Shown piece after piece: positions 1,422 to 49,040 of a stretch of 64,000 nt of DNA. The translations under genes and the position numbers were made by a program. The stretch covers positions 310,001 to 374,000 of the forward strand of contig OW568882.1 in assembly GCA_938743325.2 (NCBI GenBank), written 5' to 3'. Under the pieces are notes generated by a model. It did not search any database, was not told the DNA's origin, and was given only the letters and a program-made list of their open reading frames with translations. Each line of letters opens with the position of its first letter. The first letter of the stretch is position 1. The stretch comes from Pycnococcus provasolii. Taxonomy: Eukaryota > Chlorophyta > Pseudoscourfieldiophyceae > Pseudoscourfieldiales > Pycnococcaceae.

Positions 1422-1999
1422 AAAATAGAAAGCAAGTGAGGGTTTGTATGCTTCTGGCTGTTGAGCCTGCTTTGAGCCTGCTTTGTATTTTTCGACTTAG
1501 GGGACCTACTTCGGGGATTGTTTTTCCCCTTGGCGCGGACCTATCTGAGGGAAGGGGGAGCAAAAGGGACAGGTCGACGGATGCCGACCGTTGCTGTAAG
1601 GAGGTTTCCGGGCAAAAGACGACCGTATATGGTTGCCCGAGGGGACTGACAGAAGACTTGATTGAGCATTTTAGTCACTTCAAAGACGCCACGTCGTGAC
1701 GACATGGTGCAAACTTGCTCTTGTGTTCCAAATCGTAAATCACCAATCACGGGATGGGATGGGATTGTGATTTGGTCGGGAAATTAAGTCCACAGTGAAC
1801 TGAACAAGGTTGGCCCGGGCGTGTGATCTTGAGCTGGGCTGGCGTATCTTCTACCGCTCACCACCTCACCCTGTGCAACGTCCCTGAACAGACGCCTGCT
1901 CGAGGCCCACGGGGAGTTGCCACGGTTCCCTGCACGCTCGAAGAAGAAGAAGTACTTCATCAGCTCTCCATCGACCCTGTCCCTTCAGCTCATAACCTT
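1422..1999. other. Intergenic, nothing recognised
   Basis: This region separates the possible minus-strand coiled-coil gene from the plus-strand EF-hand gene, so it would hold both promoters. Frames present here are short and lack protein character. The EF-hand frame stays open upstream of its ATG to about 1823 but without another ATG. Confidence 0.5.
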
Positions 2000-2842
2000 A
2001 TGTCTACTCCGGCTGGGAACCAAGCACTCGGCGAGGTGCGCAAGGTGCTGCACGGCGTGCGTCTCGACGAGTGCCCCGCCTTACTGCGCGAGAAACTCGC
2101 GCAATATGATACCAACGGAAACGGCATCATCGACCCCAACGAACTGCCTGACCCCATGTCTGCGGAGATGACCTATCTCAAAGTCTCTTCGTTTCCCAAG
2201 AAGGTGCAACCGCTCCTTCACGAGATTGACGACGAGAAAAATGGAAAGATCGAGATGGACGAGCTCACGGAAATCTTAACCGTGTACGTGGACTTGAAGA
2301 AGGCGAACAAGGAAGGCTCCATCGCCATCAAGACACTTCCGAAGGAAATTCAGGTTACGCTTAAGGTGTTCGACGTCGACGGTGACGGAACGGTCGCGCC
2401 CATGGAGCTTGCTCGTGGTGCGGAGCTCTACAAGGAGTCGAAGAAAACCACAAAGCGCCTTATGATTTTCAGCGGCGTCCTCCTCATCATTCTGGTCGCC
2501 CTGGTGGCCGTCATTGTCAGCCTCACCGCCGTCGTCGTCGAGGAGACCAAGGAGACGAAGGCGGACAAGAGCGGCGCGCTCGTCAAGAAGGGAACCAGCA
2601 CGCCAGTGGGCACAGCCAAGGCGACGAAAAGCCTTGCGCTGTTCGACATGCCCGGGCAAACCGCGGGCGTGCTCTCGGGGGTGAAGCTCATCAACCTCAA
2701 GCAGTTCGGCACGCTCCTTGGATACACCATCACCGGATACCGTGCTACGGACACGAAGGTGACGTTCCTTGCGAGCTCGGGTGATGTCGTGGCAGTTGAT
2801 AACAACTTCATCAACGTCACAAGCGCGTCTGGCATGCCTTAG
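2000..2842 (+). CDS. Membrane-anchored triple EF-hand protein
   Basis: The 280-residue product is a calcium-binding protein with one membrane helix. Three EF-hand loops are visible: residues 37-48 (DTNGNGIIDPNE), 77-88 (DDEKNGKIEMDE) and 125-136 (DVDGDGTVAPME). A basic stretch then leads into a transmembrane helix at about 154-180. The C-terminal part (GT.TPVGTA..., then GYTITGY and KVTF motifs) resembles an ectodomain I recall from an abundant algal family of EF-hand plus TM proteins, where the tail often runs longer. I chose the ATG at 2000 because the longer frame from 1823 has no ATG. The stop codon is the TAG inside a TTAGGG-like repeat, so the end may be shortened. The calcium role is inferred from the loops; the membrane involved is unknown. 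Confidence 0.8.
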   Translation: MSTPAGNQALGEVRKVLHGVRLDECPALLREKLAQYDTNGNGIIDPNELPDPMSAEMTYLKVSSFPKKVQPLLHEIDDEKNGKIEMDELTEILTVYVDLKKANKEGSIAIKTLPKEIQVTLKVFDVDGDGTVAPMELARGAELYKESKKTTKRLMIFSGVLLIILVALVAVIVSLTAVVVEETKETKADKSGALVKKGTSTPVGTAKATKSLALFDMPGQTAGVLSGVKLINLKQFGTLLGYTITGYRATDTKVTFLASSGDVVAVDNNFINVTSASGMP

Positions 2843-3310: not shown

Positions 3311-4814
3311 GTCCTTCTCCTTAACCCCCAAACTTCGACAGGTGATGTGTCGTACTACAAACCCCTAAAACTCCAACACCCCCACTCGACAATCACTCGA
3401 GTACTCTCAATCCTCACAAGAATCGAATCCTACCATCTTGAGAATCCTGCGAACCAAACTCACGAAACGCACTCCACTGAGTGGCTTAGTGAATATATCA
3501 GCCAGCATGTCGTTAGTTCGGATAAACCGTACTACGATATTTTTAAGCTCATTCACCTGTTCACGCACGAAATGGTATCGTATCTCGATGTGCTTCGTTC
3601 GCTTGTGGAACACAGGATTATTTGACAGAGCAACGCATCCTTGATTGTCCTCATGGATAAGAGTTGGTTCTTGTTGAGGAAATCCAAAGTCAGCGATAAG
3701 CATGCGCAAGTGGATTGCCTCTTGACTCGCTGTGCATAGGGCCATATATTCTGCCTCCGTGGTAGATAAGGCAACGGTCGGCTGCCGTCTAGTTCCCCAA
3801 CTTATGGGCCCACCATTGAGAACGAAGATATATCCGGTAGTAGATCTGCGGGTTGTACGGTCACCACCCCAATCAGCGTCAGAATATCCGATGAGGGTGT
3901 TATCGCCGTTTCGATCGTACCATATACCGAATTCAGGTGTTCCCTTTAAGTAGCGTACTATTCGCTTGGCTAACTGCAAATGCGTAGTTGACGGGTTTCC
4001 CATCACGGTTGACGCTGCACTTACCGAATATGCAATGTCAGGTCGGGTTGCGATCGACGCGTACATGACTCCCCCGAGTAATGAGCGATACTTGTGACCT
4101 ATGTCTGCATCGGCTGACCCAACGTCGGATTCATCTTTCGCGTATTCAGAGCCAACGCTCATTGGGGTATCTGCTGATATACAATCAGCCATTCCAAGAC
4201 GCTCTGTCAGATTCAACACATATCTTTTCTGGTTGAGGCCGATTCCATGCACGACGAGGCGTGCTGTTCCTCGGCACGCCAGAGCAAGTGCATAATAGAG
4301 TGCTTCGCTCTCGTCCGGTGCGTCAGTGTGCGCGGCCGCCGTGAGCGCGGCGCCGAGCTTGCGGCTATGCGCGTACGCCGTGAACCCAAAACGCCAGTCC
4401 GCCCAACGTTCGACGTCGCCGTCGAACGTTGGGGCGAACCGCGTATCGGCTGCGCCACGCGTGGTGTCGTGCGTTCCCGTCGTCACAAGTGCCATATCTC
4501 GTGTTAACTGTGTTAACCGCGTTAAGCTGTGCTCCTGAAGGTCTCCCGACTTAAGCTCTCGACCGGAGCTTCTCCTGATGTGTTGATGCGTGCGTAGCAA
4601 CTTTTATAGAGGTGCTTGTAGGTCGCGTACTGTGTGTGTACGTGTCCGGCAGGCCCGTGCGAGTTGTACTCTGCCCGTGTTCGCGTCGAAAACGTCTCCA
4701 AACTTGTGCAAGACGCCAAACTGTGCTCCCTGAAGGTCTCCCGACCTAAGCTCTCGACCAGAGCTTCTCCTGATGTGTTGATGCGCGCGTAGCAACTTTT
4801 ATAGAGGTGCTTGT

Positions 4815-26925: not shown

Positions 26926-27466
26926 TCTGGACAGCGCCGAGATACAGTACGTGCACCAGCGGGCAGCGACGGATCCCCGCATCAGGTCAGTCCATCGTGG
27001 CAAGGGGACCCGAGCCCGAGCCCGAACCCGAACCCCCGCCCCCCAGGGCCATACATACATACCACCCTCGAGGCCTCGAACAGAGCAAGGTAAGGTTTAC
27101 AGTAGGACTAATAAGTATGATGAGGGGGCCAGGGGGGTCGACATACATGAGTGATGGCGCCATGTGACATGAGACCTGATATTGTGATGGCATGAAAGAA
27201 ACACCCTCTTTAGGTAGAAGACGCCTAAGGTAGACTATGATGTGATGTCGTTAACTATGTATGCCTCGGCCTTGTTAAGGTAGACTATCCCCGGGGGCAT
27301 GTGGTCCGAAAACCCCCTCATGCCACTATGCAAGCCTGGACTTGACAAGACGCCCGCACGCGTGGCGTTGGCCCCTTCTTCTTTCTTCCCCCCATCAAAC
27401 CCCCGACTGACTTCACGGGACGGCACCTCTTTCCTTTCCGGGTCCCTTGTGTTTTGTCTTTTTGCC
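26926..27466. other. Intergenic, nothing recognised
   Basis: It contains a CCCGAG/CCCGAACCC-type short repeat (27008-27040) and the direct repeat TAAGGTAGACTAT (about 27228 and 27278). The upstream part of the Pro-rich gene frame is open here from an ATG at 27299, but I prefer the ATG at 27467. Confidence 0.45.
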
Positions 27467-30400
27467 ATGGCGACTGGTGTAACTGGTTGGTTCGGGCCAC
27501 GGCTTTATCATGGCTGGTTTGGTCTGGCTTTAGCATGGCTTGGCTCATGGCTTTTCGCTTATTTTTTGAAACCTGTAGTGGCGCCGCCCCCGTGCGCTTC
27601 CGCGTGCTGGACGATGATCCTTAGACACGACTACCTCGAAGCCACGCACGCGAGCGAATTCGTTTTCTGGACATGGGGTGTCGCCAACCACAACAAAGGC
27701 GCGGACACAAACACAATATGCGAATACAGCCTGCTCGCCGACCTCGACGACTACAAAAGTGCCTCCGGAGACTGGGAGTTTGTCATGTACTGGAGGCAAC
27801 TTGCCGGTGGATCAAGACACAACCTGCGCTACGTGCACTGGAAGCAGAGCCACGACCCGCGAGCCAGCTGGACGGACTGCTCCAACAAGGTTGTTACAGG
27901 GTACAGTGGCATTAAAGATTCAGACTATCGAGACTTTAAGGGACTTGCAGCGGCTGCTGCCCAGAGTACTATTGATGGGAGCTGCACGGACACGAGTTCG
28001 AGAAGCTTACTTTACAAGTTAGGCTATAACCCACCAAGTGCGAACTTGAACGGCTGGAAGGGCCCGAGCTTCCTTAATTTGGTCGACACCACTACGCCGG
28101 AGGATCACAGGTGCACCGTTGTTGATAACTTTCGCAAGTGCGACGTCAAAGCGGTGGAACTATGGGCCTACTACAAGCCGAACACCGGCGATGCCGACGG
28201 CACGTGGACTGATCCCGTCGCGCCCATCTGCCCGCCGCCTTCGCCACCGCCACCTCCGCCACCTCCGCCACCTCCGCCAAGCCCGCCTCCATCTCCTCCA
28301 CCTTCACCACCTCCATCTCCTCCACCTTCACCACCTCCATCTCCACCTCCATCTCCTCCACCTTCACCACCTCCACCTTCACCACCTCCATCTCCACCTC
28401 CATCTCCACCTCCATCTCCTCCACCTTCACCACCTCCATCTCCACCTCCATCTCCTCCACCTTCACCACCTCCACCTTCACCACCTCCATCTCCTCCTCC
28501 ATCTCCTCCACCTTCACCACCTCCACCTCCATCTCCTCCACCTTCACCACCTCCATCTCCACCTCCATCTCCTCCGCCTCCTCCGCCTCCGCCTCCTCCG
28601 CTTCCACCAAGCCCGCCTCCACCGCCTCCACCGCCTCCTCCACCCTCTCCACCCTCTCCACCATGTGCTTCAATTGGGACCTGCTCACCACCACCACCGT
28701 CACCACCTCCATCTCCACCTCCATCTCCTCCACCTTCACCACCTTTATCTCCACCTCCATCTCCTCCACCTTCACCACCTCCACCACCTCCACCTTCACC
28801 ACCTCCATCTCCACCTCCATCTCCTCCACCTTTACCACCTCCATCTCCACCTCCATCTCCTCCGCCTCCTCCGCCTCCGCCTCCTCCGCTTCCACCAAGC
28901 CCGCCTCCTCCGCTTCCACCAAGCCCACCACCGCCAAATCCTCCGCCATCGCCACCGCCGAGGTTCGTACTTTTGTTCACCTGCCTGATTTTTGATTCTA
29001 TGACTTACAACTATGATCACTCACCTCATTTCACCTAACATTTTCTCAGCCCCCCGCCGACACCTCCTCCGCCAAGCCCGCCTCCTCCCCCTCCCCCTCC
29101 TCTCCCGCCACTACCTCCGTCGCCACCGCCACCACCATCACCACCACCTCCACCATCGCCTCCACCTCCACCCAGCCCACCGCCTCCACCATCGCCTCCA
29201 CCTCCACCCAGCCCGCCGCCGCCGCCAAGTCCCCCGCCGCCACCGAGTCCACCCCCCCCTCCTCCAAGCCCCCCTCCTCCACCACCACCCAGTCCGCCGC
29301 CGCCGCCAAGCCCACCACCGCTACCACCGCCTCCGTCGCCACCTCCCCATCCACCGAGCCCGCCGCCGCTGCCGATTCCACCACCTTTCCTTCCCCCAAA
29401 TCCCCCAAATCCGCCGAGTCCGCCTCCACCGAGTCCGCCTCCACCTCCACCGAGTCCACCACCTCCACCGAGCCCGCCTCCACCGCCGCCGTCGCCACCA
29501 CCGCCACCACCTCCTTCACCACCGCCGCCACCGAGCCCACCGCCGCCGCCGAGCCCGCCACCGCCGCCGAGCCCGCCGCCTCCTCCTCCACCGCCACCCT
29601 CTCCACCTCCACCACCCTCTCCACCTCCACCACCTCCTCCTCCAAGCCCGCCGCCGCCGCCTCCACCCAGCCCGCCGCCACCTCCGCCACCGCCACCACC
29701 TCCGCCGCCACCACCTCCTCCACCACCACCTCCGCCGCCACCACCTCCGCCGCCACCGCCGAGTCCTCCGCCACCCCCCCCTCCACCCCCGCCTCCTCCA
29801 CCACCTCCTCCTCCAAGCCCGCCGCCTCCGCCTCCACCCAGCCCGCCGCCACCTCCACCACCCAGCCCGCCGCCACCACCTCCACCCAGCCCGCCGCCGC
29901 CGCCGAGTCCACCACCACCCCCGAGTCCCCCGCCACCTCCGAGCCCTCCACCTTTACCCTGCACGGCGACAAACACCTGTCCACCACTACCGCCCTTCGC
30001 CCCGCCACCACCCAGCCCGCCGCCACCGCCTAGCCCACCGCCACCACCCAGCCCACCGCCACCACCCAGTCCGCCCCCTCCTCCACCGCCGCCCAGTCCG
30101 CCTCCTCCGCCTCCTCCGCCACCACCGCCCAGTCCGCCTCCTCCGCCATCCCCATCGCCACCGCCGAGTCCGCCACCGTCACCTCCTCCTGTGCCGTTCA
30201 CTCCAGACGCAAGGGCATTTATTGAGCGAACGAGAGTTGATCAGATCGACCCTGGAGTGCAACCTTCATCGTCGGTCGATGTGCCTCCAGAGGCGGCAGC
30301 CATGGGCTACGTGGGCACGACTGCTGTCGCTGCGACAGCGACAAGCACGGCGACAGTGAGCATCATGGATATTGCAATGAGCGGGGTTCAACATGGGCAA

Positions 30401-31918
30401 CAGACTGCACCGGTGAGCAGTCCGATGCGTTTTGCGCTTCGCATGCAAACGTTGGCAGCCGTGGCGTGGTTGTTCCGCGGGGAGGCTGCTGCGCAAACAC
30501 GCCGCCTGCGACGGCGATGGCTCGTTGAAACTGAAGCTGAAGCTGAAGCTAACTCCTCCGTCAACGTGGGTGCAAGTTCCTATGACAGCCTAGGCTTTTT
30601 GAACTGCATTGAGCCGCTTCCCTGGGAGAATCGCAGTGCGGCAGGCAGTTCTCGCACGAAGCTTGAGCGTTGCTTGGGATGGTTTGTTCTGCTTCTACTA
30701 TCAGGCATCATCATGCGGAGTGCGATCTCAATGTACTTGAATGCGAGGCGGCGTGCTCGACGACGTTCTGGTGATGTCAACGACGCTGACGAGAAATCCG
30801 TGAAGTCAGATTTGCTTTTTTTCCCGCGTGTTGAAATCTTCGTGCTCGCGCTTATGATGATCCCATTAACGCTCGCCTCTGTTGCATACGCCATCGACAT
30901 TGCCGATGGAACGCTAGATTCGGATCCGGGTGGTAATTTCACAAGCTTCATGCTCGCCTTGGTTGTGGTTGCCTATCTCGCTGGATCTTGCGCTATTTCC
31001 TATCGAGCTATGCGAGGTGACATATCGTATGTTATCGAAAAGGATGGAACAGGGCGGTGGATGCCATCTTCTGGCTTTAGCACATCAGATCACTCGAACT
31101 ACGTCTCGCGCTACGGTGCGCAGCTCGCGCATGTTCGAGGGTACATCGAACACGACGATGAATATGTCGAATTGCGAAGCAATCTTTCTCCTCTTTATAT
31201 CGTCCTGGAGCCTGCTTTTCTCTGTGCTGCGGTCGCATGCTGTGCCTGCGGTGGTGGAGAGGGTGGCAGCTCATCTCGACGCTCAACGTGCGCAATCATT
31301 GTAGCTATTATAATGGCGCTCGACTTGACAGTCGTGTGCGTCTTGCGTCCGATGATCACGGCCATGATGAACTTCTGCGCCGCTGTTGCATCGTTGGGCA
31401 GCTTCATATCTTTCGTCATGCTCGCCGTATATTTTCGAACAAACAACAAGGACTTACTACCGGCTATCGTGGCAATCCATCTGACTTCTGTCATCGGATT
31501 CGGCATGGTTATTCAGATATTTGGCACGGCGAAGCAGCTTTACCATCGCTACATTGTTGGACGGATCAAGCATACTCGCGAGAGTGGTGAGCCGGAGAAG
31601 GAGCAGCTGGCGGAGACGCCCGAGAAGGAGGACCAGTACGACGTTCATGTGAAAGTGACGGATAATGGCAGCATCTTGACGCACGTCGAGACAAAGAAAT
31701 CCACCACAGTTCTCGAGACACAAAATGGTAGTCGAGATGCTCATCATGTCGTGGACACTGGCTTAGGCTGTACGCCTAAGCAGGTTTCCGCCTACCGTGG
31801 CAAAGAGGTTGACTTTTTCTCGGGACCTCTATCTGAGCAATCCGTCGATGTCGTCTGGCTGGACGAGGTGGCTGGACGGCGGCGATCGACGAAGAAGAAA
31901 AAGTCGCGGGAACCTTAA
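27467..31918 (+). CDS. Pro-rich (SPPP) extracellular/TRP-FLC-like multipass membrane protein, two exons
   Basis: Exon 1 is 27467-28962 and exon 2 is 29050-31918, giving about 1454 residues. The N-terminus is a hydrophobic signal or anchor (WFGLALAWLGSWLFAYFL). A globular domain with cysteines follows (residues about 40-245), with the pattern YKSASGDWEFVMYW, WKQSHDPR, VVTGYSGI and VELWAYY that I recall from algal secreted proteins. Next come about 620 residues of Ser-Pro-Pro-Pro repeats with two CASIGTC/CTATNTC-like Cys breaks, as in hydroxyproline-rich wall proteins. The C-terminal 570 residues contain seven or eight transmembrane helices with FFPRVEIFVLALMM, similar to the fungal-type TRP/FLC-like module. 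It may link wall and membrane ion transport; that is inference. An alternative ATG at 27299 would add 56 residues. Confidence 0.75.
28229..30190 (+). repeat. CCX-CCA-type repeat encoding poly(Ser-Pro-Pro-Pro)
   Basis: Nearly the whole segment is C-rich on the plus strand and G-rich on the minus strand, made of variants of TCTCCACCTCCA and CCGCCGAGCCCG. The sub-blocks TCTCCTCCACCTTCACCACCTCCA are repeated nearly exactly in the first half, while the second half uses CCG/CCC-rich units. It encodes the rod of the Pro-rich protein and is interrupted by the intron at 28963-29049. Confidence 0.9.
28963..29049 (+). other. 87-bp intron inside the Pro-rich rod
   Basis: Donor AG then GTTCGTA, a CTAAC branch-like sequence 17 bp before the end, and acceptor TTTTCTCAG. 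Removing it joins AG and C into AGC (Ser) and continues the SPPP pattern in frame. The following frame has no ATG until after the rod, which supports splicing. Confidence 0.85.
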
Positions 31919-32342
31919 TTTGATACCACCTAGTGGGTACCTACTTCTAGGTGCTTGTACTTTAGGCGGACTGTAACTTCACAAACAACATAATGTGTTA
32001 CCAACTACATGATAGACTATGATAGGAGTCATTGGTAGTACTATCATAATACTACTATGAAAGATGTGTTACTTACCAGTTGCCAGTTGACCGAACTCGA
32101 GGACTCGGCGTAGACTTCGGCGTAGCCTGGAAGGACGGGGGATTCAGTCAGGGGTTAACAAGGGTTGTTCATTCCCGTAAGCACTTTGGTCAAAAAAGAA
32201 GTCGGGGTTGGGCTTCCCCCCTTTTGAGGAGGGGGTACACTTCCCACCCCTCTCGTGGCGTCGGCGTCGGCGGCGGCGGCGGCGGCGGGCGTGTAAACCT
32301 TACACGCGTGCTGCTTGCTTGCGCTCACCTCTGCTCGATGAC
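31919..32342. other. Spacer with hairpins downstream of the Pro-rich gene
   Basis: A hairpin CACCTAG...CTAGGTG lies 10-35 bp after the stop codon (about 31928-31953), and an inverted pair CTATGATAG...CTATCATAA lies near 32013-32050. A GGC-rich stretch (32263-32288) lies before the SET gene ATG. No gene was recognised. Confidence 0.5.
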
Positions 32343-33083: not shown

Positions 33084-33367
33084 CTGGGACCAGAACTGGA
33101 AATGCTCAGTAGACTACTGTAAATACTTACGGCTTGTATACGTGTACATACAGAACAGAACAAACATGAATCCGCACTCTCACAACTTTCTGGCCACTTT
33201 CCGGATGAATAATCTCCTTTCCTTTCCCATCCATCCATCGGAAAGGTGCCGTCAGGACCAGGGGTTGCCGTCCCGCCCAGGTGTGCCATATTTGCCCCTT
33301 TGGCCCACGCCCACGGCCACGGCCACGCCCAGCAAGAGCACACGGACTGGTGCTCTTGCCTAATGCG
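33084..33367. other. Short intergenic region
   Basis: Includes a CCCACGGCCACGGCCACGCC-type run (33308-33330) and a duplicated CTAATGCGATGAC (33361 and 33381) that supplies two of the alternative ATGs of the next gene. Nothing else was recognised. Confidence 0.5.
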
Positions 33368-35458
33368 ATGACCTGCATGCCTAATGCGATGACTACGACT
33401 ACAACGACTACTACAACGGATAACGTAGTTGTTATTAAGGATAACGGAAGCCGCGACTATCTCGCCGCGGCTCGTACGCGTGCTAATACATGCAACGGGG
33501 CTGTGCAAGTGCTCGTGGTCGTCATGACGGCGTTCGTCCTTGCCGGTGTCGTGGCAGGGAAGATCCTCGATCGGATACCGTCCGACTTGCAGGACCGCGG
33601 CGAGGACTTGCAAGCGACAAGGATGATGAGGGAATATCGACGCATGCTCAAGCAAGTCAACCCGCAGACGCAGGCGGCTTTCACAAACGTTTACGCCGGA
33701 CGGCATTGGGGGCACGACGGCGGAGGAAGTGGAGCGGGATCGAGTCTGCATTTCACCGGGCCGCTGCGTGCTCTGCTGAAACGTCTCGTCGAGTCGCTAG
33801 GAATCAAGTCGCTTGTTGACATGCCATCTGGGGCAGCCACGTGGCAGGACGTTTTTCTCCAGGACCTCTTCAAGACGAAACTGGACTTCAAGTACCGAGG
33901 CGTGGAAATCGTCAAGTCACTCGTCGACGCGGCGAACGCACGATGGATACACGAACCTCGCGTCTTCTTTACCGTCGGGGACGTGGCAGAAGAGCCTGTG
34001 CTGAGCGGCTATGACGCCATCTTCAGCAGGGACGCGCTGCAGCACAACACGTATTTGGACATCATCAAGACGCTTCGGAACTGGGCACACAGCGATGCGA
34101 AGTACCTGCTCGTGGGCTCGTACCCTTCTATGCCTGCAAACCACAACCTCGCTGGTCCTGGAGGCAACCACTTCGACATTGACCTTGCGAAGGCGCCGTT
34201 CAACCTGACACCGTGGCAGGTTCACCTCGAGAGTGCGTTTACATACGGACCGGGGGACCATGAAAAGCACATCTACGTGTACAAGATCAACGACCTGAGA
34301 CTGGTGGACTTCGACGCGATGGCGCAAAGAGCTGGCGTCGGTCGCCTGCCACCGCTACCTACATCAGCTGCAGATACTTCCTTGGCGAAATCCGTCGAAA
34401 TAGCGACGAGTGCTGATGACGCCGATATTATCACGGGCGTTCTTGTTGACACAGGACCCGAGGTGAGGTACAACATGGAGGATGTCATGGACACCTTCGT
34501 GAAGAATCTGCCCAGCGGAACCAACTTTCACATCGTGTATCGCATTGGCATGGGCGGTGAAGAGCGCATCCACGCTTACGTCGATAAGCAGCGTGCACGT
34601 CCAAACGCCGTGCGCTGGACGCTCGATGGGTTGCCTAAGGAGCTCGTCGCAAGTCGCGAATCCTACAGTCGGCTGATGACGAACGCGACGTGGTATAGGA
34701 ACCTTCCCGGGGGAGACATGATTCTCATTTTCCACACAGACAGCGTCGCATGCAGCAAGCCAAAGCGGAACATGCGCGAGTACCTCAAGTACGATCTTGC
34801 GGCGCCACCGTGGCCGCTAGAATGGAATACTGGGACGGCGGGTAAAGGCGGATTTTCTCTGAGGCGCAAGTCCGCGATGATCGCGCACATTGAACGCTAC
34901 GAAAAGTTGATTCCGGGAATGAAGGAAATGCACCCACCAATCCACCCGGAGGATGTGTTTTTCGCCAAAAGCGACGTGCTGCACTATCCGAGTAGACATG
35001 ATTTGCAAGAATTCGCGGTGGAGCATGTCTTCAGCGAAGCGCCGTTGGGCGTACACCAGCCGTGGCATGCCCTCAGTAAGGTGGGATCGCATCAAAGGGA
35101 TCTTCTGACTAAGAACTGCCCAGAGCTACAGCTTGTCGTGAGCGATCCGAGACGTCATGTGCCGGTGCCAAGGCCTCACGGAATGGCGGAGCCAGCTGCG
35201 GTATCACAAGCTAGGGCGAAGCGCGACGCTTTCGTACGTAAGGCGACAGGCGCCCTGCAAGACGCGATAGAACGTACTAGGTTGTCATCGCGTCAGGCTC
35301 AGAGGACGGACGAGCGCGGAAATCAGACGTTCAGCCCGCCTGTGCTCGTGAAGCACTACTCTCGGGCCGCTCACCACCACGAGACGCGGCATGAGCACCG
35401 CTCGTCTCGCTTCTACCGCAGCAGATCGCGCGTGAGGAGGAGGCCTTCAGGCAGGTGA
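33368..35458 (+). CDS. Type II membrane protein: SAM methyltransferase-like plus DUF5672 glycosyltransferase-like fusion
   Basis: The 696-residue protein has a short cytosolic N-terminus, one membrane helix at about residues 42-62 (VLVVVMTAFVLAGVVAG) and a large lumenal part, so it is probably a Golgi enzyme. The first domain (about 120-310) resembles a class I methyltransferase with DMPSGAATWQD, YRGVEIV, YDAIFSRDALQH and KYLLVGSYP. The second (about 345-590) matches DUF5672, found in glycosyltransferase-like proteins: GGDMILIFHTDSVAC, KYDLAAPPWP, GKGGFSLRRKSAMI, HPEDVFFAK and a closing GVHQPWHAL. A basic, His/Arg-rich tail follows. Methyl and sugar transfer to the same glycan is a plausible inference only. 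Alternative ATGs lie at 33377 and 33389; the frame opens further upstream only with GTG. Confidence 0.8.
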   Translation: MTCMPNAMTTTTTTTTTDNVVVIKDNGSRDYLAAARTRANTCNGAVQVLVVVMTAFVLAGVVAGKILDRIPSDLQDRGEDLQATRMMREYRRMLKQVNPQTQAAFTNVYAGRHWGHDGGGSGAGSSLHFTGPLRALLKRLVESLGIKSLVDMPSGAATWQDVFLQDLFKTKLDFKYRGVEIVKSLVDAANARWIHEPRVFFTVGDVAEEPVLSGYDAIFSRDALQHNTYLDIIKTLRNWAHSDAKYLLVGSYPSMPANHNLAGPGGNHFDIDLAKAPFNLTPWQVHLESAFTYGPGDHEKHIYVYKINDLRLVDFDAMAQRAGVGRLPPLPTSAADTSLAKSVEIATSADDADIITGVLVDTGPEVRYNMEDVMDTFVKNLPSGTNFHIVYRIGMGGEERIHAYVDKQRARPNAVRWTLDGLPKELVASRESYSRLMTNATWYRNLPGGDMILIFHTDSVACSKPKRNMREYLKYDLAAPPWPLEWNTGTAGKGGFSLRRKSAMIAHIERYEKLIPGMKEMHPPIHPEDVFFAKSDVLHYPSRHDLQEFAVEHVFSEAPLGVHQPWHALSKVGSHQRDLLTKNCPELQLVVSDPRRHVPVPRPHGMAEPAAVSQARAKRDAFVRKATGALQDAIERTRLSSRQAQRTDERGNQTFSPPVLVKHYSRAAHHHETRHEHRSSRFYRSRSRVRRRPSGR

Positions 35459-35835: not shown

Positions 35836-36741
35836 CTATGGTCTCGGCACGTCCACCACCACCGGTCCCGGCGACGGCTTCGCCTCGCCCATGAACGGGT
35901 TGTTGTCGCGGTGCGGGAACGACTTGGCGTGTCCGTTGGGCTTGAACACGATCGGGAACTTGTGCGGCGGCTCGCCCTTGAGGCCGTACGGGTCGTCCAT
36001 CGACGGCGGGAACTTGCCGATGCCCGCGTATGCGCGTCCCTTTTTGGGCGGGTTGCTCGGCTTGAAGCGCGGCCGGCTCGCGACGTCTTCGCTCACCTCC
36101 TTCGACTTCTTCTCCTTCGGCGCGAAAGCGCCAGGCTCGTAGCTTAGGTAGTCCTTTTTTGCAATCAATCCGGGCCGTGCGGTGCTGATGAACGGCTTTT
36201 GAATTTTTTCGCGCGCCGCTTTCTGCTCCGTTTTCTCCATTGCCCGCGCTGGCAGGTACGGCTCCGGGAAGTAGTCGAGCGGCTTGCCCATGGTCGTTCC
36301 TGGCGTTCCGTAGCTGCCCTTCTTGGGTACAGCCGCCGTGAAGTTGCGCAGGTGTTCTCGTGGTGGCTTTGCATCCTCCCTCTCGTCGTCGCGCATGAAC
36401 TCGGGACTTTTGCCGAAGCAGCCTTGCCAGCTGCCCTTGTGACTAGACGTCTTTGCGGGATTTGAAGGGAAGAATGGCTTCGGACTTGCAAACTTCTTGC
36501 GGCTCTCCACGTCCTTACGCCGTTCCGCTGCGCCAGGGTCGACGTACGTGTCGCCCTCGCTGAGCCTCTTGAAGTCCTTCGAGATTGTTTTTTCGTGTCC
36601 TCCTTTTGGGAAAGGCACGCCAAACTGCTTCCCCTGGTACCTTTCCGGCAGCTTATCTCCGGTCTCGTACTCGCTTCCTATGCACAGCGGCGGCATTGCG
36701 CTGAAGAGCCCCGTGCGCGTGAGCTCCGTCGGGCCGCTCAT
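35836..36741 (-). CDS. CFAP96: Cilia- and flagella-associated protein 96 (C4orf47 family)
   Basis: The 301-residue protein follows the CFAP96/UPF0602 pattern. It starts with TRTGLFSAMPPLCIGSEYE (GLFS.M...IG..Y in animal proteins), followed by KKFASPKPFFPSNPAK. The middle has KKGSYGTPGTTMGKPLDYFPEP and the distal part has FKPSNPPKKGRAYAGIGKFPP with DPYGLKG. It is basic, Pro/Lys-rich and without membrane segments, as expected of a microtubule inner or axoneme-associated protein. Its presence argues that the organism makes cilia at some stage. The length is close to that of the animal proteins. The ATG at 36741 is the first in the frame. Confidence 0.85.
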   Translation of the reverse strand: MSGPTELTRTGLFSAMPPLCIGSEYETGDKLPERYQGKQFGVPFPKGGHEKTISKDFKRLSEGDTYVDPGAAERRKDVESRKKFASPKPFFPSNPAKTSSHKGSWQGCFGKSPEFMRDDEREDAKPPREHLRNFTAAVPKKGSYGTPGTTMGKPLDYFPEPYLPARAMEKTEQKAAREKIQKPFISTARPGLIAKKDYLSYEPGAFAPKEKKSKEVSEDVASRPRFKPSNPPKKGRAYAGIGKFPPSMDDPYGLKGEPPHKFPIVFKPNGHAKSFPHRDNNPFMGEAKPSPGPVVVDVPRP

Positions 36742-37782
36742 GACGACCTCTTATTTATTTGCTGTGCAGAATAAAATAGGACAAGCAGCACAGTGACAAG
36801 CAGCACAGACACCTGCGCACGTGTACGTGTACGTGTACGTGTACTTGTGTCGGCGACGCGTGCGCAACGTCTTATATATTATATATTATGGTAATAATGT
36901 ATGTCCGGTGCGCGAGCGTGTCGGAGGAGCACCAATAGGAGGAGGAGTGTAACCGGTGAACCCCGCTGGGAAAGGGAAAGGGAGCGACTAGCGGCCGTAG
37001 CGGGTCCCGGGTCCGACCAACTGCCCGTGGGAAAGCGTGAGGCCGCGAATCGGGGAACGCAACGCAACATTGGCAGGACTTACCCGTAACTTACGCTTCC
37101 TCGAGGCACCTGACCGGCCGACGAGCATAGACCTGTCGCATAGGCTACGGATAGGCGTAACCTTTACTTCTAAGTGGCGAACCTCCGAAGAATAGTACTA
37201 ATTTCCCCCCGGTTCCACCCATCACGGCGACGCGACGCGACGCGAGGCTGCATCAACTGCTGGTAATACAGTAAGGGTAAAGGGAGACAACTTCCACCTG
37301 CTCAAGAGGGTTGGTGGCCCGGTAATAACTAATATGCACATAAGTTACCGGGTAGTGGTAGGAAGCGGTGATCATACCACCAAGGGAAGGACGGTGGCTG
37401 TGTGGACCTGGTGGCCGTACCCATACCCGGTGCGACCAACGAGTGGAACCCCGGCGCCAGACCCGGGGAACGGAACGGCCCATCCGGTAACCCTAACCCT
37501 AATTCCCACGCGTTGAAAGGGCGCCGTGGCGGCGGATAAGTTTAAGGAAGCGGAGCGCGACGTGCAGTTGGCAGTATGAGCGCGCAAGTGTCAGCACGGT
37601 ACTGCACTGCAACTAAAGCGAAGATGTACAGTACGGCGCACGCGACAAGAGGAGCGTACTTATTATGAGAGGTCGTGCTTTTGCAAAAACAGGAGACAAA
37701 GCTGACTTGACTACAAAGCTCACTAAAAGTTATCGCGTTGCAGCGTAAGCGGCGCGTATCCCTTAAGGGTCCGTGGGTGGCC
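36742..37782. other. Intergenic, about 1 kb
   Basis: Holds the CFAP96 promoter with a GTGTAC repeat (36822-36845) and a TATATATT-rich stretch (36872-36892), then a region without recognised genes. Two CCCTAA units occur at 37491-37502. Frames are short and of no clear character. Confidence 0.5.
36822..36845. repeat. (GTGTAC)n short tandem repeat
   Basis: ACGTGTACGTGTACGTGTAC-type repeat, about four units, about 80-105 bp upstream of the CFAP96 ATG. Confidence 0.85.
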
Positions 37783-38418
37783 TTACGCGCTCTGCTTAGC
37801 CAGCGCCTTCGCCTTGCGGTTCGCCTTGTCGAGCGCAGACAGACGCTTGAGCGCGGAGTCCTTCAGGTCGGGCCTGAACTTGTCGATGTTTCCGCTAATC
37901 ACCTTGTTCATCTTAGACAGGTGCTTTCCCGTCATTTGGTAGTCCTGGTTTCCTCCCATCTGAAACGCCAAGAACTCGCTCATGCTGATGCTTCCGCTCC
38001 TGTCCTTGTCGCAAGCGTGGAACTTAGCGACGTGCACACGCGGCGGCGGCAGGCCACTCATCTTAAGGTAGATGGCGACGAACTCCTTGAAGGACACCTG
38101 TCCGTCCCTGTTAGTGTCCGCCGACTTGAACTTTTCGGGCAGGTTGTTGAGCGCCATGAGCTCGGGCGAGACGAGCTCGTTGAGCTTGATTTGCATACCC
38201 TCTCCACGCTGCATGTCGAAAGAGCGCACGTTGGAGATCGCGCTGTGCTTGAATGTGTGCAGGGACGCGATGTTGCCCTTTTCGCTCGTGAGGTGAATCT
38301 TGTTGAGTCCCTTTTGGCGGGTTGCGGCGGCGTTCGTTCGCTTGAAGCTGTTGTTGCGTCGCACGCACGCCCACACCAGGTCCGCCGAGCACGTCGCGTC
38401 AGTCGTGTGGTCAATCAT
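37783..38418 (-). CDS. Ribosomal protein eL28 with an internal EF-hand pair
   Basis: The 211-residue frame begins like eukaryotic eL28: ADLVWACVRRNNSF (residues 12-25), then SEKGNIASLHTFKHSAISN (45-63), equivalent to plant LIWEIVKRNNCF and SYKHSGLANKKT. It ends like plant eL28: SKMNKVISGNIDKFRPDLKD, then SALKRLSALDKANRKAKAL (168-206), equivalent to FSRMSKVVANQV...YYRPDLKKAALARLSAI. Between them, instead of about 40 plant residues, are roughly 85-95 residues with two canonical EF-hand loops: 101-112 (DTNRDGQVSFKE) and 137-148 (DKDRSGSISMSE), each followed by an F/L-rich helix. All calcium-ligand positions are filled. The frame is uninterrupted, with no splice signals at the borders. The ATG at 38418 (MIDHTTDA) is used. 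It should be a 60S subunit protein; calcium binding on the ribosome is inference. Confidence 0.8.
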   Translation of the reverse strand: MIDHTTDATCSADLVWACVRRNNSFKRTNAAATRQKGLNKIHLTSEKGNIASLHTFKHSAISNVRSFDMQRGEGMQIKLNELVSPELMALNNLPEKFKSADTNRDGQVSFKEFVAIYLKMSGLPPPRVHVAKFHACDKDRSGSISMSEFLAFQMGGNQDYQMTGKHLSKMNKVISGNIDKFRPDLKDSALKRLSALDKANRKAKALAKQSA

Positions 38419-39101
38419 GTTTGCGAAATACGTTTGTGTATATGAGTTCGCAGCGCGCTTGATGGCCGATGCGCAAAAGCACCTTGCACACCTTACCAAC
38501 GGGGCGGCGGTGTCAAAAAATCCCCGTGAAGCTCGTGTCTCACTATCAAATGTCGTCTAACGACGGGTCCCCTCACGCATGAGCTCCAGGTGAACTTCCT
38601 TCGCCAAGGCTGCCGATCTGCTTTTCTCGATGTGCTGGCCGATGTGTTGTTTTTGTGTGCCGAGAGAGGTGGTCAAGAGCAAGGCGGAACGGCGAGAGGC
38701 ACGGGGCAGATGAGAAGATGAGACGCGCTTTCCTGAGCTGTCAACCCTTCGTTCATCGAAGCGGTCAAGACTCAAAGAGTGGATGCGGTGAGGAGCAAAA
38801 ACACTTTCCAAGCTTTCTAAAACATTTTACTGTACTTGCGATTCAGGTCGGCGAAGTTTTTAACCCCCTCGCGGCGTAACCACATTTAACAGTCACACTT
38901 CACCTCAAATTCCAAACCACACAACCAGCCAACTCGTCGCCCTCCGAGGAGATTCCTTCACCGCACGCCAACCCGCCTCTCACGCGTCTGCAACCGCGGA
39001 GATCGACATCCCAGACGCTCGTTGTACCGTGCGCGCCGCCGCGGCTGTGTCTACGGCCTGGCCTCACAAGCAAGCGAGCGAGCAAGCGAGCGAGCGCGTA
39101 T
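38419..39101. other. Divergent intergenic region, no gene recognised
   Basis: This holds the promoters of eL28 (minus) and the HAD gene (plus). An AAGC/GAGC repeat (39066-39096) lies immediately before the HAD ATG. Frames present are short. Confidence 0.5.
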
Positions 39102-45715: not shown

Positions 45716-46190
45716 TCATCCTGTGTGGTGGCTGTGCTCGTGCCCGTGTCCTTCATGGTCATGGTCGTGGCAGCAGTCGTTGGTGCCTGCGTTTTCGCAG
45801 CAGTCCTTAATGCCAGCATGGTGGCTGTGCTCATGCCCATGTCCTTTGTGCTCATGGTGGCTGCAGCAGTCGTTGGCGCCTGCGTTTCCGCAGCAGTCCT
45901 TAATGCCAGCATGGTGGCTGTGCTCATGCCCATGTCCTTTGTGCTCATGGTGGCTGCAGCAGTCGTTGGTACCAGCGTGGTGGCTGTGCTCATGCCCATG
46001 TCCTCCGTGCTCATGGTGGCTGCAGCAGTCGTTGGTGCCAGCGTGGTGGCTGTGCTCGTGCCCGTGTCCTCCGTGCTCATGGTGGCTGCAGCAGTCGTTG
46101 GTGCCTGCGTTTCCGCAGCATTCATTAGCGCCTGCGTGGTGACTGTGCTCGTGTCCGTGTCCGTGTCCGTGTCCTCCGAGCTCGTGCTCA
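45716..46190 (-). repeat. Tandem repeat encoding His-rich/Cys-Cys metal-binding tail
   Basis: Six units of the type GHGHEHSHHAGTNDCCSHHEH (22 residues, 66 bp) occur, some lengthened to 31 residues by an extra ..CCGNAGAND segment. The DNA copies are nearly identical, so the array has expanded or been homogenised recently. Confidence 0.92.
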
Positions 46191-49040
46191 TCGCCGTCGT
46201 AGGCGTCAAAGAATGCCTTTCGTTCCGCCCTACTGTGTCGAGCCTTCTTTTGGAATCGATACAGAGGCGTGAGACCAACCAAAATCACCAGCAAGCTCGT
46301 CATCACATCCGCGAGAATGGCCATCCACAGCTTCGCGTGGTTCGATGAAAACGAAATCGCGACAACGGCAATCTTCACGACAACGGCAAATCCGATGTTG
46401 CCCCAAATCACCGCACGGCAGTAGAATGCGATGCGCAGCGCAAGCGGTACCATGGTAAGGTCATTCGTCATCAGGCTAACCTCGGCAGTCTCCATAGCCA
46501 CCGCCGATCCAGCGACGCCCATAGCGACGCCAACGCGTCCCGCCGCAAGTGCGGGTGCGTCGTTGATGCCATCGCCGAGCATCATCACCTTTCCCTCACG
46601 GCGACATCCAAGGCCCTCGCGCACGAGCGCGAGCTTGTCTCCCGGAGCCAAGCTCGCGTGCACAGCGCTCTCCTCGATACCCAGAAGCCGGGCCACACGG
46701 CACGCCGCAGGCGCGGAGTCTCCCGTGAGGATCTCCGTCACCACGCCGAGTCGTCCGAGATCCGCTACCGCATCGCCGGCGCTCTCACGTGGCTCGTCTG
46801 CCGCCACGATTGTTCCCCAGAAGTCAGCATCGGTGCCCGCATAGATCACCGACGCGCCGTTCGCCTCCGCGTCTTGCACCACAGCCTTGTCAGCCGATCG
46901 CATCCGCGACAGCCATCCAAGTCGCTCCGCGAGGCGGCGGTTGCCCGCATACACGCGCTCCTTGCCTGCGGACGAGACGACGCCGCATACACCTTCGCCG
47001 GGTATGTTTTCGTAGTCCGCCTCCATGGCCTCCGCAGCCGTTGAGTTGTGGCTGTGGTCGTCCGCGCCATCGTCGCGAGCCGCGCGCACGATCGCCGCGG
47101 CGATCGGATGCGGGCTGCGTGACTCGAGCGCCGCCATCGTCTGCAGCAAAAATGAGCGAGCGAAAGCCGTGCGAACTTCTGGTCCGAGGTTGACACTGCG
47201 GCCGTGCACGCGCACGAGCTCGGCACTCGGGTGGCATCCGAGCACCTCGAAGCGAGCGGTGGTGAGCGTACCCGTCTTGTCGAGCGCTACCGCACGTACA
47301 CCCGCCATCGCTTCGAGCGCTGAGCTGCCCTTGATGAGGATTCCACGCCGTGCGGCAGCGGCGACGCCTGAAACCGCGGAAACCGGGGTGGCAAGCACGA
47401 GCGCGCAGGGGCATGCCGTCACGAGAAGAACGAGCGCCTTGTGAAGCCACTCATTGCATTCCGCAGAACCGGAGCCACATGGCACGGCAGCCGTGAGGAT
47501 AGCGGCGAGTACAACCAGTGGCGTGTACACCATGGCAAATTGCTCGATAATTTTCTCCGCCCTGCTGCGATTCATGGAAGCATCCTCGACGAGGCGTGCC
47601 ATCTTCGCCACGGCTGAGTCTTCCGCGGATGCTGTCACGGTGCACTCCATGTACCCCGTGAGATTCGTCGTTCCCGCGCTGACCAAGTCTCCTGGCGACT
47701 TGTTCACCGGCGCCGCCTCGCCTGTCAGAATGCTCTCGTCCACCTTGCTGACGCCGCGCACAACGTGCACGTCAACGGGCACCTTCGTCCCGGGCTTGAT
47801 GGCGACGAGGTCTCCGATGGAGAGCTCTTCCACGCCTACCATCTTTCCGCCGACGAGTTCCGCCTCCTCTGGTGCGAGCGCGATCACCTCCGCAAGCGCC
47901 GCGCGACTTCGCGCGAGAGCTCGCTGCTCAAGCATCTCGCTGGCCCCGAAGAGGAATGCCACCGCAGCCGCCTCGGTGAACTCCTGAAATGTGAAGAGTT
48001 TTTGGGTGTGCGTGGTGTGTGCGTTGGGTTAGTCGTGTTGGTTGGGACGCCATTGACATTGCCTCAAACCAAACCAAACGAAAAATGTGTATACGTACCT
48101 GCAGCGCGAGTGCCCCTGCGATGGCAAGCAGCATGAGCATGTTGATATCGATGACGAGCAGTCGCATGGCGAGTACCGCCTTGTACGCGATGGACGGCAG
48201 CGCGAGCGCGACTGATCCCAACGCGAACCACTTGAGGTGCTCGGCTCCAGGTATGTAGTGCAAGACGGCGGCGACGAGCAGGATACCGGAGACGACGACG
48301 AGCCAGTCCTTACCCTCGATGAGCTTCGCATCTCCACCTAGCCTTCGTTTGGCTTCGGACGCCAACGAAGCCTCGAGTCCAGCGCGGTTGAGCGTGTCGA
48401 CGAGTTCGTCGCCGCTTATGAGCGACGCGTTGTGCTCGACGACGACAGTCCTGCTGACGACCGCCACCTTGTGCGACACGACTCCTGGCAGTCTACCAAT
48501 GGCGCGGTTGACGATGGGAACCTCAGATGGGCAGCATATTCCTCCGCAGTAGATGCGCGTAGTTTCCTTGGTTCCACCGAACACCTGCAGGACGACATCC
48601 CCGCTTGATGCCGCTGATCCGCTTTCTTTCACGGCCGGACCGTGGTCGAACGCGGTTCCTTTTTCGCAGCACCCGTTGTCGCACGCTTCCCTCTGCACGT
48701 GTATGAGTCGTCCTTTCACGACGAAGTCGAGGTGTCCGTTATGTTCGACGACTTGAAATCTCCCGCTGAGGCACTGGAACACGACGTCGAAAGACGACAG
48801 TGACGGCATGGCCAAAGCCTGCGACGAAGAAGGGTCGGCACGCGCGCGCCCTGCTGACAACGACAACGTTGAGTCGTGGGGTACGTCGTGCTCAACCCCA
48901 GCATCGGCATCCTTTTTGTCCGCAAGCAGCGCCTGCAAGAGGTCGGACGAGCGGTCAGATGCTGCGTCCGGCGCCAGGAGCGTGGCGTGCGTATCGCAGC
49001 ACGCCGTCTTCGCGTACCCCTTCGACGACTGGCACGACAT
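45716..49040 (-). CDS. P1B-type heavy-metal ATPase (Zn/Cd/Pb class), two exons
   Basis: Exon 1 is 49040-48099 and exon 2 is 47983-45716, together 1069 residues. It should export Zn2+, Cd2+ or similar ions by ATP hydrolysis. The cytosolic N-terminus has Cys pairs (TACCDTH, DNGCCEK). A metal-binding HMA domain follows with YCGGICCPSEVP (about residue 165), the GICCPSE motif typical of the Zn/Cd class. The core shows the TGEAAP actuator motif, CPC in TACPCALVLATPVS (about 503), the phosphorylation site DKTGTLT (about 548), an HP motif in SRSPHPIAAAI, and GDGINDAPAL (about 781). The last 155 residues are His/Cys-Cys repeats. The ATG at 49040 (MSCQSSKG) is preferred; an in-frame ATG at 49403 would add 121 low-complexity residues. 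Confidence 0.92.
47984..48098 (-). other. 115-bp intron in the P1B ATPase gene
   Basis: Donor CTGCAG then GTACGTATAC; acceptor CTTCACATTTCAG then GAGTTCACC. It is phase 0 and joins ALALQ to EFTEAAAVAFLFGA, a continuous membrane helix region expected in the family. Confidence 0.9.

What the first reader, a model, noticed from the sequence alone, without database searches (positions are those of the whole stretch)
37783..38418. Ribosomal protein eL28 carrying an EF-hand pair in its middle
The ends of this 211-residue frame match plant eL28 in order (ADLVWACVRRNNSF, TFKHSAISN at the start; KMNKVISGNIDKFRPDLKD, ALKRLSAL at the end). The part between is a two-EF-hand module with every calcium-ligand position filled (residues 101-112 and 137-148). 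There is one uninterrupted frame and no splice sites at the borders. A core 60S protein with a built-in calcium sensor is not something I know to be described. It could tie translation or ribosome location to calcium.
Basis: partly seen in the sequence, partly recalled or inferred. Interest (0 to 1): 0.92.

Follow-up and report, generated by a model that had tools for sequence, protein, structure and literature searches.

The report
Ribosomal protein with calcium-binding module inside
One gene, probably from a green alga, encodes the ribosomal protein eL28 with a two-site calcium-binding module in place of a loop; if the protein is made and built into ribosomes, it would put a calcium-responsive part on the ribosome's surface.

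Summary
Window 38418..37783 (minus) is one open frame of 211 codons. Its ends are eL28 in order, its middle a canonical EF-hand pair: Pfam Ribosomal_L28e 42.1 bits (cut-off 33.2), four EF-hand models above cut-off. With the middle left out the ends align collinearly to a plant eL28: 61.2 bits, E 1.1e-15. About 30 eL28 residues, including a basic loop conserved in plants, are replaced. Two EF-hand patterns arose in 0 of 200,000 shuffles. Codon bias is similar in all three parts. Weak splice-like pairs exist, but each would leave a shortened eL28. The 41 plausible eL28s among 42 PDB matches are at most 150 residues long. Not testable here: transcription, a second ordinary eL28, assembly into 60S, calcium binding, spread among algae; no genome is held, and five scans of viral and prokaryotic collections found no relative. 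Best reading: this is the organism's eL28, sitting near ES7L on the 60S, with a calcium-dependent docking or bracing lobe. eL28 is dispensable in some lineages, so 'core' overstates it.

The parts
37783..38418 (-). whole gene: eL28 with nested EF-hand pair, 211 aa plus stop (P0001)
   Evidence: single open frame; Pfam Ribosomal_L28e 42.1 bits and four EF-hand models above cut-off; GC3 0.83 over the whole gene
38182..38418 (-). N-terminal eL28 part, residues 1-79 (secure alignment to residue 70; residues 71-79 possibly the second strand of a hairpin, by eye)
37939..38181 (-). inserted module, residues 80-160, carrying the EF-hand pair; borders uncertain by about 10 residues on the N side and 5 on the C side
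38083..38118 (-). EF-hand loop 1, residues 101-112 (DTNRDGQVSFKE)
   Evidence: Pfam EF-hand_1 stretch 97-117
37975..38010 (-). EF-hand loop 2, residues 137-148 (DKDRSGSISMSE)
   Evidence: two EF-hand stretches
37786..37938 (-). C-terminal eL28 part, residues 161-211, with FRPDLKDSALKRLSAL

Best explanation
The gene encodes this organism's eL28. The residues conserved in plant eL28 are largely kept in the two ends, and the stretch between them, which in plants holds a basic loop, has been replaced by a complete two-EF-hand lobe. SHOWN: one frame; eL28 ends in order; canonical EF-hand pair; similar codon bias. INFERRED: the protein folds as an eL28 core with the lobe nested in a loop, joins the 60S on its back side next to ES7L-a, and carries the lobe at that surface. 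Calcium binding would then open the lobe's hydrophobic face and let it grip a partner (a neighbouring protein, a membrane or a signalling protein), or tighten its packing on the subunit. Cytosolic calcium would so change ribosome location or stability, without touching the catalytic core.
For: Pfam and PDB matches at both ends in order. Collinear 61.2-bit match when the middle is left out, and 48.5 bits intact; with the same plant query the six best PDB eL28s score 149-216 bits and the other 35 score 13.4-60.3, so the intact protein lies above 30 of those 35 and the trimmed one above all 35. Retained residues include W16, N22, N23, F25, KHS 57-59, N63, RPDLK and ALxRLSA. EF-hand pair complete and spaced as a lobe. 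GC3 0.80, 0.84 and 0.84 in N, module and C parts, against 0.56-0.84 in 10 reference genes. eL28 is associated with ES7L on the LSU back side (passages) and stabilises ES7L-A in most eukaryotes (passages).
Against: No transcript, protein, relative or genome could be examined. The plant basic loop (KTKKQN.P in 5 of 5 printed sequences), presumably rRNA-binding, is gone, and net charge is +5 over the 30 replaced residues of one plant eL28 but -1 over residues 80-160 here, so the ribosome contact may be weakened. The codon preference score of the module (0.200) is a little below that of the flanks (0.271, 0.270). Weak in-frame splice-like pairs exist. Structure prediction was uninformative: mean pLDDT 35.7 for the whole protein and 45.5 for the module, single sequence.
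Confidence: 0.48

Rival explanations
1. Extraribosomal paralogue: the genome also has an ordinary eL28, and this copy has become a free calcium-binding RNA-binding protein or a minor ribosome variant.
For: The basic loop, presumably rRNA-facing, is lost. Plant ribosomal protein families have 2-7 paralogues (abstract of PMC11987935). A second copy could not be searched for.
Against: The ends score within the range of eL28 orthologues, not as a strongly diverged copy; GC3 is at the high end for this window.
Confidence: 0.25
2. eL28 in which the EF-hand lobe is only structural: it holds calcium or magnesium permanently and props ES7L or the neighbouring surface, with no signalling role.
For: eL28 stabilises ES7L (passages), and another lineage adds an eL28 extension that braces rRNA, the C-terminal extension in Leishmania (passages).
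Against: Both loops keep all ligand positions of the pattern and the pair has the build of a regulatory lobe; the module is not basic, unlike the rRNA-bracing extension in Leishmania.
Confidence: 0.17
3. Artefact: the module is spliced out, or the frame is an assembly chimera or a pseudogene.
For: In-frame GT...AG pairs exist, the best being GTGCGC at codon 64 to GCGTTTCAG at codon 153, 270 nt. Reads and transcripts were not available.
Against: No GTACGT-type donor near the module, while the one intron read in the window is GTACGT...TTTCAG. Excision would leave an eL28 short of 18 or more residues and, for the codon-64 donor, would also remove residues that align to eL28. Codon bias in the module is close to that of the flanks; no repeats of 12 or more around the gene.
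Confidence: 0.1

Closest known systems
Plant cytosolic eL28 (Pfam PF01778; PDB 9h3g_AQ, 8azw_N, 7qiw_r, 4v7e_Cr)
   Same: N-terminal about 70 residues and C-terminal about 48 residues, in order, with many plant-conserved residues kept
   Different: These are 143-147 aa; here about 30 central residues with the basic KTKKQN.P loop are replaced by about 90 residues with two EF-hands
EF-hand pair lobe (Pfam PF13499, PF00036; CDPK and calmodulin-type)
   Same: Two canonical loops at normal spacing; best PDB matches of the middle are calcium-dependent protein kinases, E about 1e-6
   Different: Nested inside a ribosomal protein instead of a kinase or a free sensor
Kinetoplastid eL28 with lineage-specific C-terminal extension
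   Same: Lineage-specific elaboration of eL28 (passages of PMC5071889 and PMC7672448)
   Different: That extension is terminal, basic and binds ES42L; this one is internal, near-neutral and belongs to a calcium-binding family
Ribosomal proteins made as fusions, such as ubiquitin-eL40 and ubiquitin-eS31 (recalled; UBA52 as ubiquitin-eL40 also seen)
   Same: A ribosomal protein joined to another domain in one frame
   Different: Ubiquitin is a cleaved N-terminal partner (recalled); here the domain is nested and cannot be cleaved off without cutting eL28 in two

Membership tests
eL28 (PF01778) | Whole-protein Pfam score above the gathering cut-off | tested here: met
   42.1 against 33.2 bits; each end alone falls below it (31.1 and 17.6)
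eL28 (PF01778) | Both ends present, in order, collinear | tested here: met
   61.2 bits over the full 112-position plant ends query when the middle is left out of both
eL28 (PF01778) | Central hairpin and basic loop of plant eL28 | tested here: not met
   Alignment is secure only to residue 70 and from residue 165; KTKKQN.P absent; a hairpin second strand at residues 74-80 is possible but unproven. Whether this loop defines eL28 outside plants was not tested
eL28 (PF01778) | Present in the 60S subunit | not testable with these tools
   No proteome or structure of this organism
EF-hand pair | Two loops fitting the calcium pattern, with G at 6 and a hydrophobic residue at 8 | tested here: met
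   loops starting at residues 101 and 137
EF-hand pair | Binds calcium at a physiological concentration | not testable with these tools
   Needs purified protein
EF-hand pair | Helix-loop-helix fold predicted | tested here: inconclusive
   Single-sequence model shows helices either side of each loop but mean pLDDT is only 45.5

The most novel reading that the evidence does not exclude
A constitutive eukaryotic ribosomal protein has itself become a calcium sensor: every 60S of this organism would carry an EF-hand lobe at the back of the subunit near ES7L, coupling calcium transients directly to ribosome positioning or translation without calmodulin or eEF2 kinase.
Probability: 0.33. Interest if true: 0.92.

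Novelty: new variant of a known kind. Interest (0 to 1): 0.74.

Why it matters
Ribosomal proteins gain tails and loops, but a signalling domain nested inside one is, to my knowledge, undescribed; I saw no paper of that kind in the listings of six searches of the open library. If the protein is in the ribosome, calcium control of translation becomes testable at the ribosome itself, and it gives a natural example of a site on eL28 that tolerates a folded domain.

Tried and rejected
Intron reading: in-frame GT/GC...AG pairs with donor in codons 56-110 and acceptor in codons 120-185 that keep the frame open were listed (170 pairs; only the GT ones printed). The pair with the best-looking acceptor, GTGCGC (codon 64) to GCGTTTCAG (codon 153), 270 nt, is in frame; its product ends the N part at ...HSAISN and loses the strand VRSFDMQ that aligns to eL28, so I judge it unlikely, not excluded. 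GTATGC (codon 74) to GGGAG (codon 156), 246 nt, leaves an eL28 short of about 18 residues. GTATGC to GCGTTTCAG is out of frame and gives an early stop. GCGTTTCAG was the only match to the pyrimidine-rich acceptor pattern in the gene. When I checked the report against the calls I found that I had first left out the codon-64 pair; for that reason I raised the artefact rival from 0.08 to 0.10 and lowered the best explanation from 0.50 to 0.48.

Local origin of the module: tblastn of the insert against the window found itself and one further match at E 2.4; the other EF-hand gene in the window, 1823-2842, was not matched; the two ends matched only themselves at E up to 1. No direct or inverted repeats of 12 or more in 37700-38500.

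Relatives: P0001, a full eL28 alignment and a C-terminal alignment were scanned against viral contigs, and the two alignments against genome contigs; 0 confirmed relatives in all five.

Structure: two single-sequence AlphaFold jobs, both too poor for a fold search; I ran no fold search.

Paper searches (open PMC papers only; listings, not the papers): eL28 + EF-hand, 0 papers; L28e + EF-hand, 1, judged unrelated from title and start of abstract; RPL28 + EF-hand, 11, whose titles and abstract starts look like expression, proteome or transcript surveys; ribosomal protein + EF-hand + fused + ribosome + calcium sensor, 1, on DAP3 and Miro1; four-term calcium-binding ribosome search, 0; L28e phrase with insertion or EF-hand, 15 of 1,568 listed, none of the 15 holding the L28e phrase. 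The organism was not identified: Pycnococcus was only a guess, searched once; a look into its genome paper failed and was dropped.

Full report
OBSERVATION. The minus strand of window 38418..37783 is a single open frame of 211 codons starting with ATG. hmmscan against Pfam gives Ribosomal_L28e at 42.1 bits (cut-off 33.2) and EF-hand_1, _5, _6 and _7 above their cut-offs; EF-hand_8 is just below its own. Split into pieces, the N-terminal 86 residues give L28e 31.1 bits (E 3.9e-07) and the last 57 residues 17.6 bits (E 0.0062), both below the cut-off; the middle 90 residues give EF-hand and related calcium-binding models plus weak matches, and no L28e. phmmer of the whole protein against the PDB matches 377 sequences, of which 60 are shown: plant eL28 9h3g_AQ is best at E 7.6e-11 with two stretches, residues 8-74 to eL28 2-64 and 163-209 to eL28 90-138; EF-hand proteins, led by calcium-dependent kinases, match the middle.

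MORE THAN CHANCE. Against a profile of four plant eL28s, the two ends score 87.8 and 76.2; shuffled ends reach at most 37.2 and 38.2 in 100 shuffles each, and the best two-part score of 164.0 compares with at most 65.8 in 60 shuffles of the whole protein. Both EF loops (residues 101-113 and 137-149 as 13-mers) match the calcium pattern; of 200,000 shuffles 147 had one or more and none had two. The only other two matches to this pattern in six frames of the window lie in another gene, within 2108-2410.

HOW THE TWO ARE JOINED. A plant eL28 (8azw_N) reads ...[41 protein letters not shown]... through the middle. The alignment of this protein is secure up to residue 70 and from residue 165, so roughly 30 eL28 columns are replaced by about 94 residues. 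By eye (inference), GMQIKLN at 74-80 could be the second hairpin strand, so the lobe would take the place of the loop after it. Net charge is +5 over the 30 replaced residues of 8azw_N and -1 over residues 80-160 here. With the middle left out, the flanks align end to end with a plant eL28 from which the middle was also left out: 61.2 bits, E 1.1e-15; the intact protein scores 48.5 bits. With the same query, 41 plausible eL28s in the PDB score as follows: the six best 149-216 bits, the other 35 from 60.3 (7r81) through 54.8 (6xu6), 41.5 (22tu) and 26.0 (4v8p) down to 13.4 (8tpu). The intact protein lies above 30 of those 35, the trimmed one above all 35. The comparison favours the trimmed protein, since natural eL28s carry the middle that the query lacks; even so, the flanks look like an orthologue, not a strongly diverged copy.

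ONE GENE. GC at third positions is 0.80, 0.84 and 0.84 in N part, module and C part; codon preference scores are 0.27, 0.20 and 0.27 in frame, against -0.18 to 0.11 in the other five frames of the three parts. Of 11 reference genes listed, which I chose from the long frames, 10 were in frame and used (GC3 0.56-0.84); the eleventh was given out of frame and was left out of the counts. There are no repeats of 12 or more around the gene and no second copy of any part in the window at the levels searched. The one intron I read in the window, in the metal-ATPase gene at 48098-47984, is 115 nt long with GTACGT...TTTCAG. Inside the eL28 gene no GTACGT or GTAAGT-type donor lies near the module. Against this stands an in-frame pair with a good-looking acceptor, GTGCGC at codon 64 to GCGTTTCAG at codon 153, and a weaker one, codons 74 to 156. 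Both products would be eL28s lacking 18 or more residues of the middle, and the first would also remove residues that align to eL28. Only transcripts can settle this.

RARITY. The plant ends query matches 42 distinct PDB sequences at E up to 1. One (interferon gamma) is plainly unrelated; one is labelled as a histone methyltransferase but has the length and score of eL28; 41 are plausible eL28s, 73 to 150 aa long, none near 211. Very divergent eL28s may be missed by this query. Viral and prokaryotic collections gave no relative in five scans, and no genome of the organism is held. I saw no paper on such a protein in the listings of six searches of the open library. That the organism is a green alga is an inference from the plant-like best matches of eL28 and the look of the neighbouring genes.

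MECHANISM. [quoted passage not shown] Passages of PMC7672448 say that eL28 stabilises ES7L-A in most eukaryotes, is missing in yeast and Euglena, and has an extra C-terminal extension in kinetoplastids (also PMC5071889 passages). PMC12642447 passages report its absence in Babesia divergens. eL28 is thus a surface protein that lineages alter or lose, which makes acceptance of a foreign domain plausible and makes 'core' an overstatement. The most likely working is a surface lobe near ES7L that, with calcium, grips a partner or firms up the local structure. Where the replaced loop points was not determined here. Regulation by calcium, and even incorporation, are inference.

VERDICT. A real, unusual architecture, new as far as I could search, classed as a new variant of eL28. 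The main doubt is whether this is the organism's working eL28 or a side copy.

Noticed in passing
window 45716-47962 (-): Metal-type P-ATPase (E1-E2 ATPase) with a long C-terminal tail of repeated CC/His-rich units (DCCSHHEHGGHGHEHSHHAG and the like, by eye), perhaps metal-binding.
   Followed up: no
window 48098-47984 (-): A 115-nt intron with GTACGT...TTTCAG in the same ATPase gene.
   Followed up: partly
window 1823-2842 (+): Another EF-hand protein, with a hydrophobic stretch after the EF-hands.
   Followed up: no
window 35836-36741 (-): A nearby gene encodes CFAP96, a cilia and flagella protein (138.3 bits), so the organism likely has or had flagellar genes.
   Followed up: partly
window 3407-4600 (-): Frame that looks like the end of a copia-type retrotransposon (by eye).
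   Followed up: no
window 27299-30360: Long SPPPSPPP-rich coding stretch with strong GC skew (-0.368 at 28001-32000), like green-algal cell-wall proteins (family recalled).
   Followed up: no
window 33281-35458 (+): 725-aa frame with DUF5672 (82.1 bits) in its second half and, by eye, a methyltransferase-like first half.
   Followed up: no
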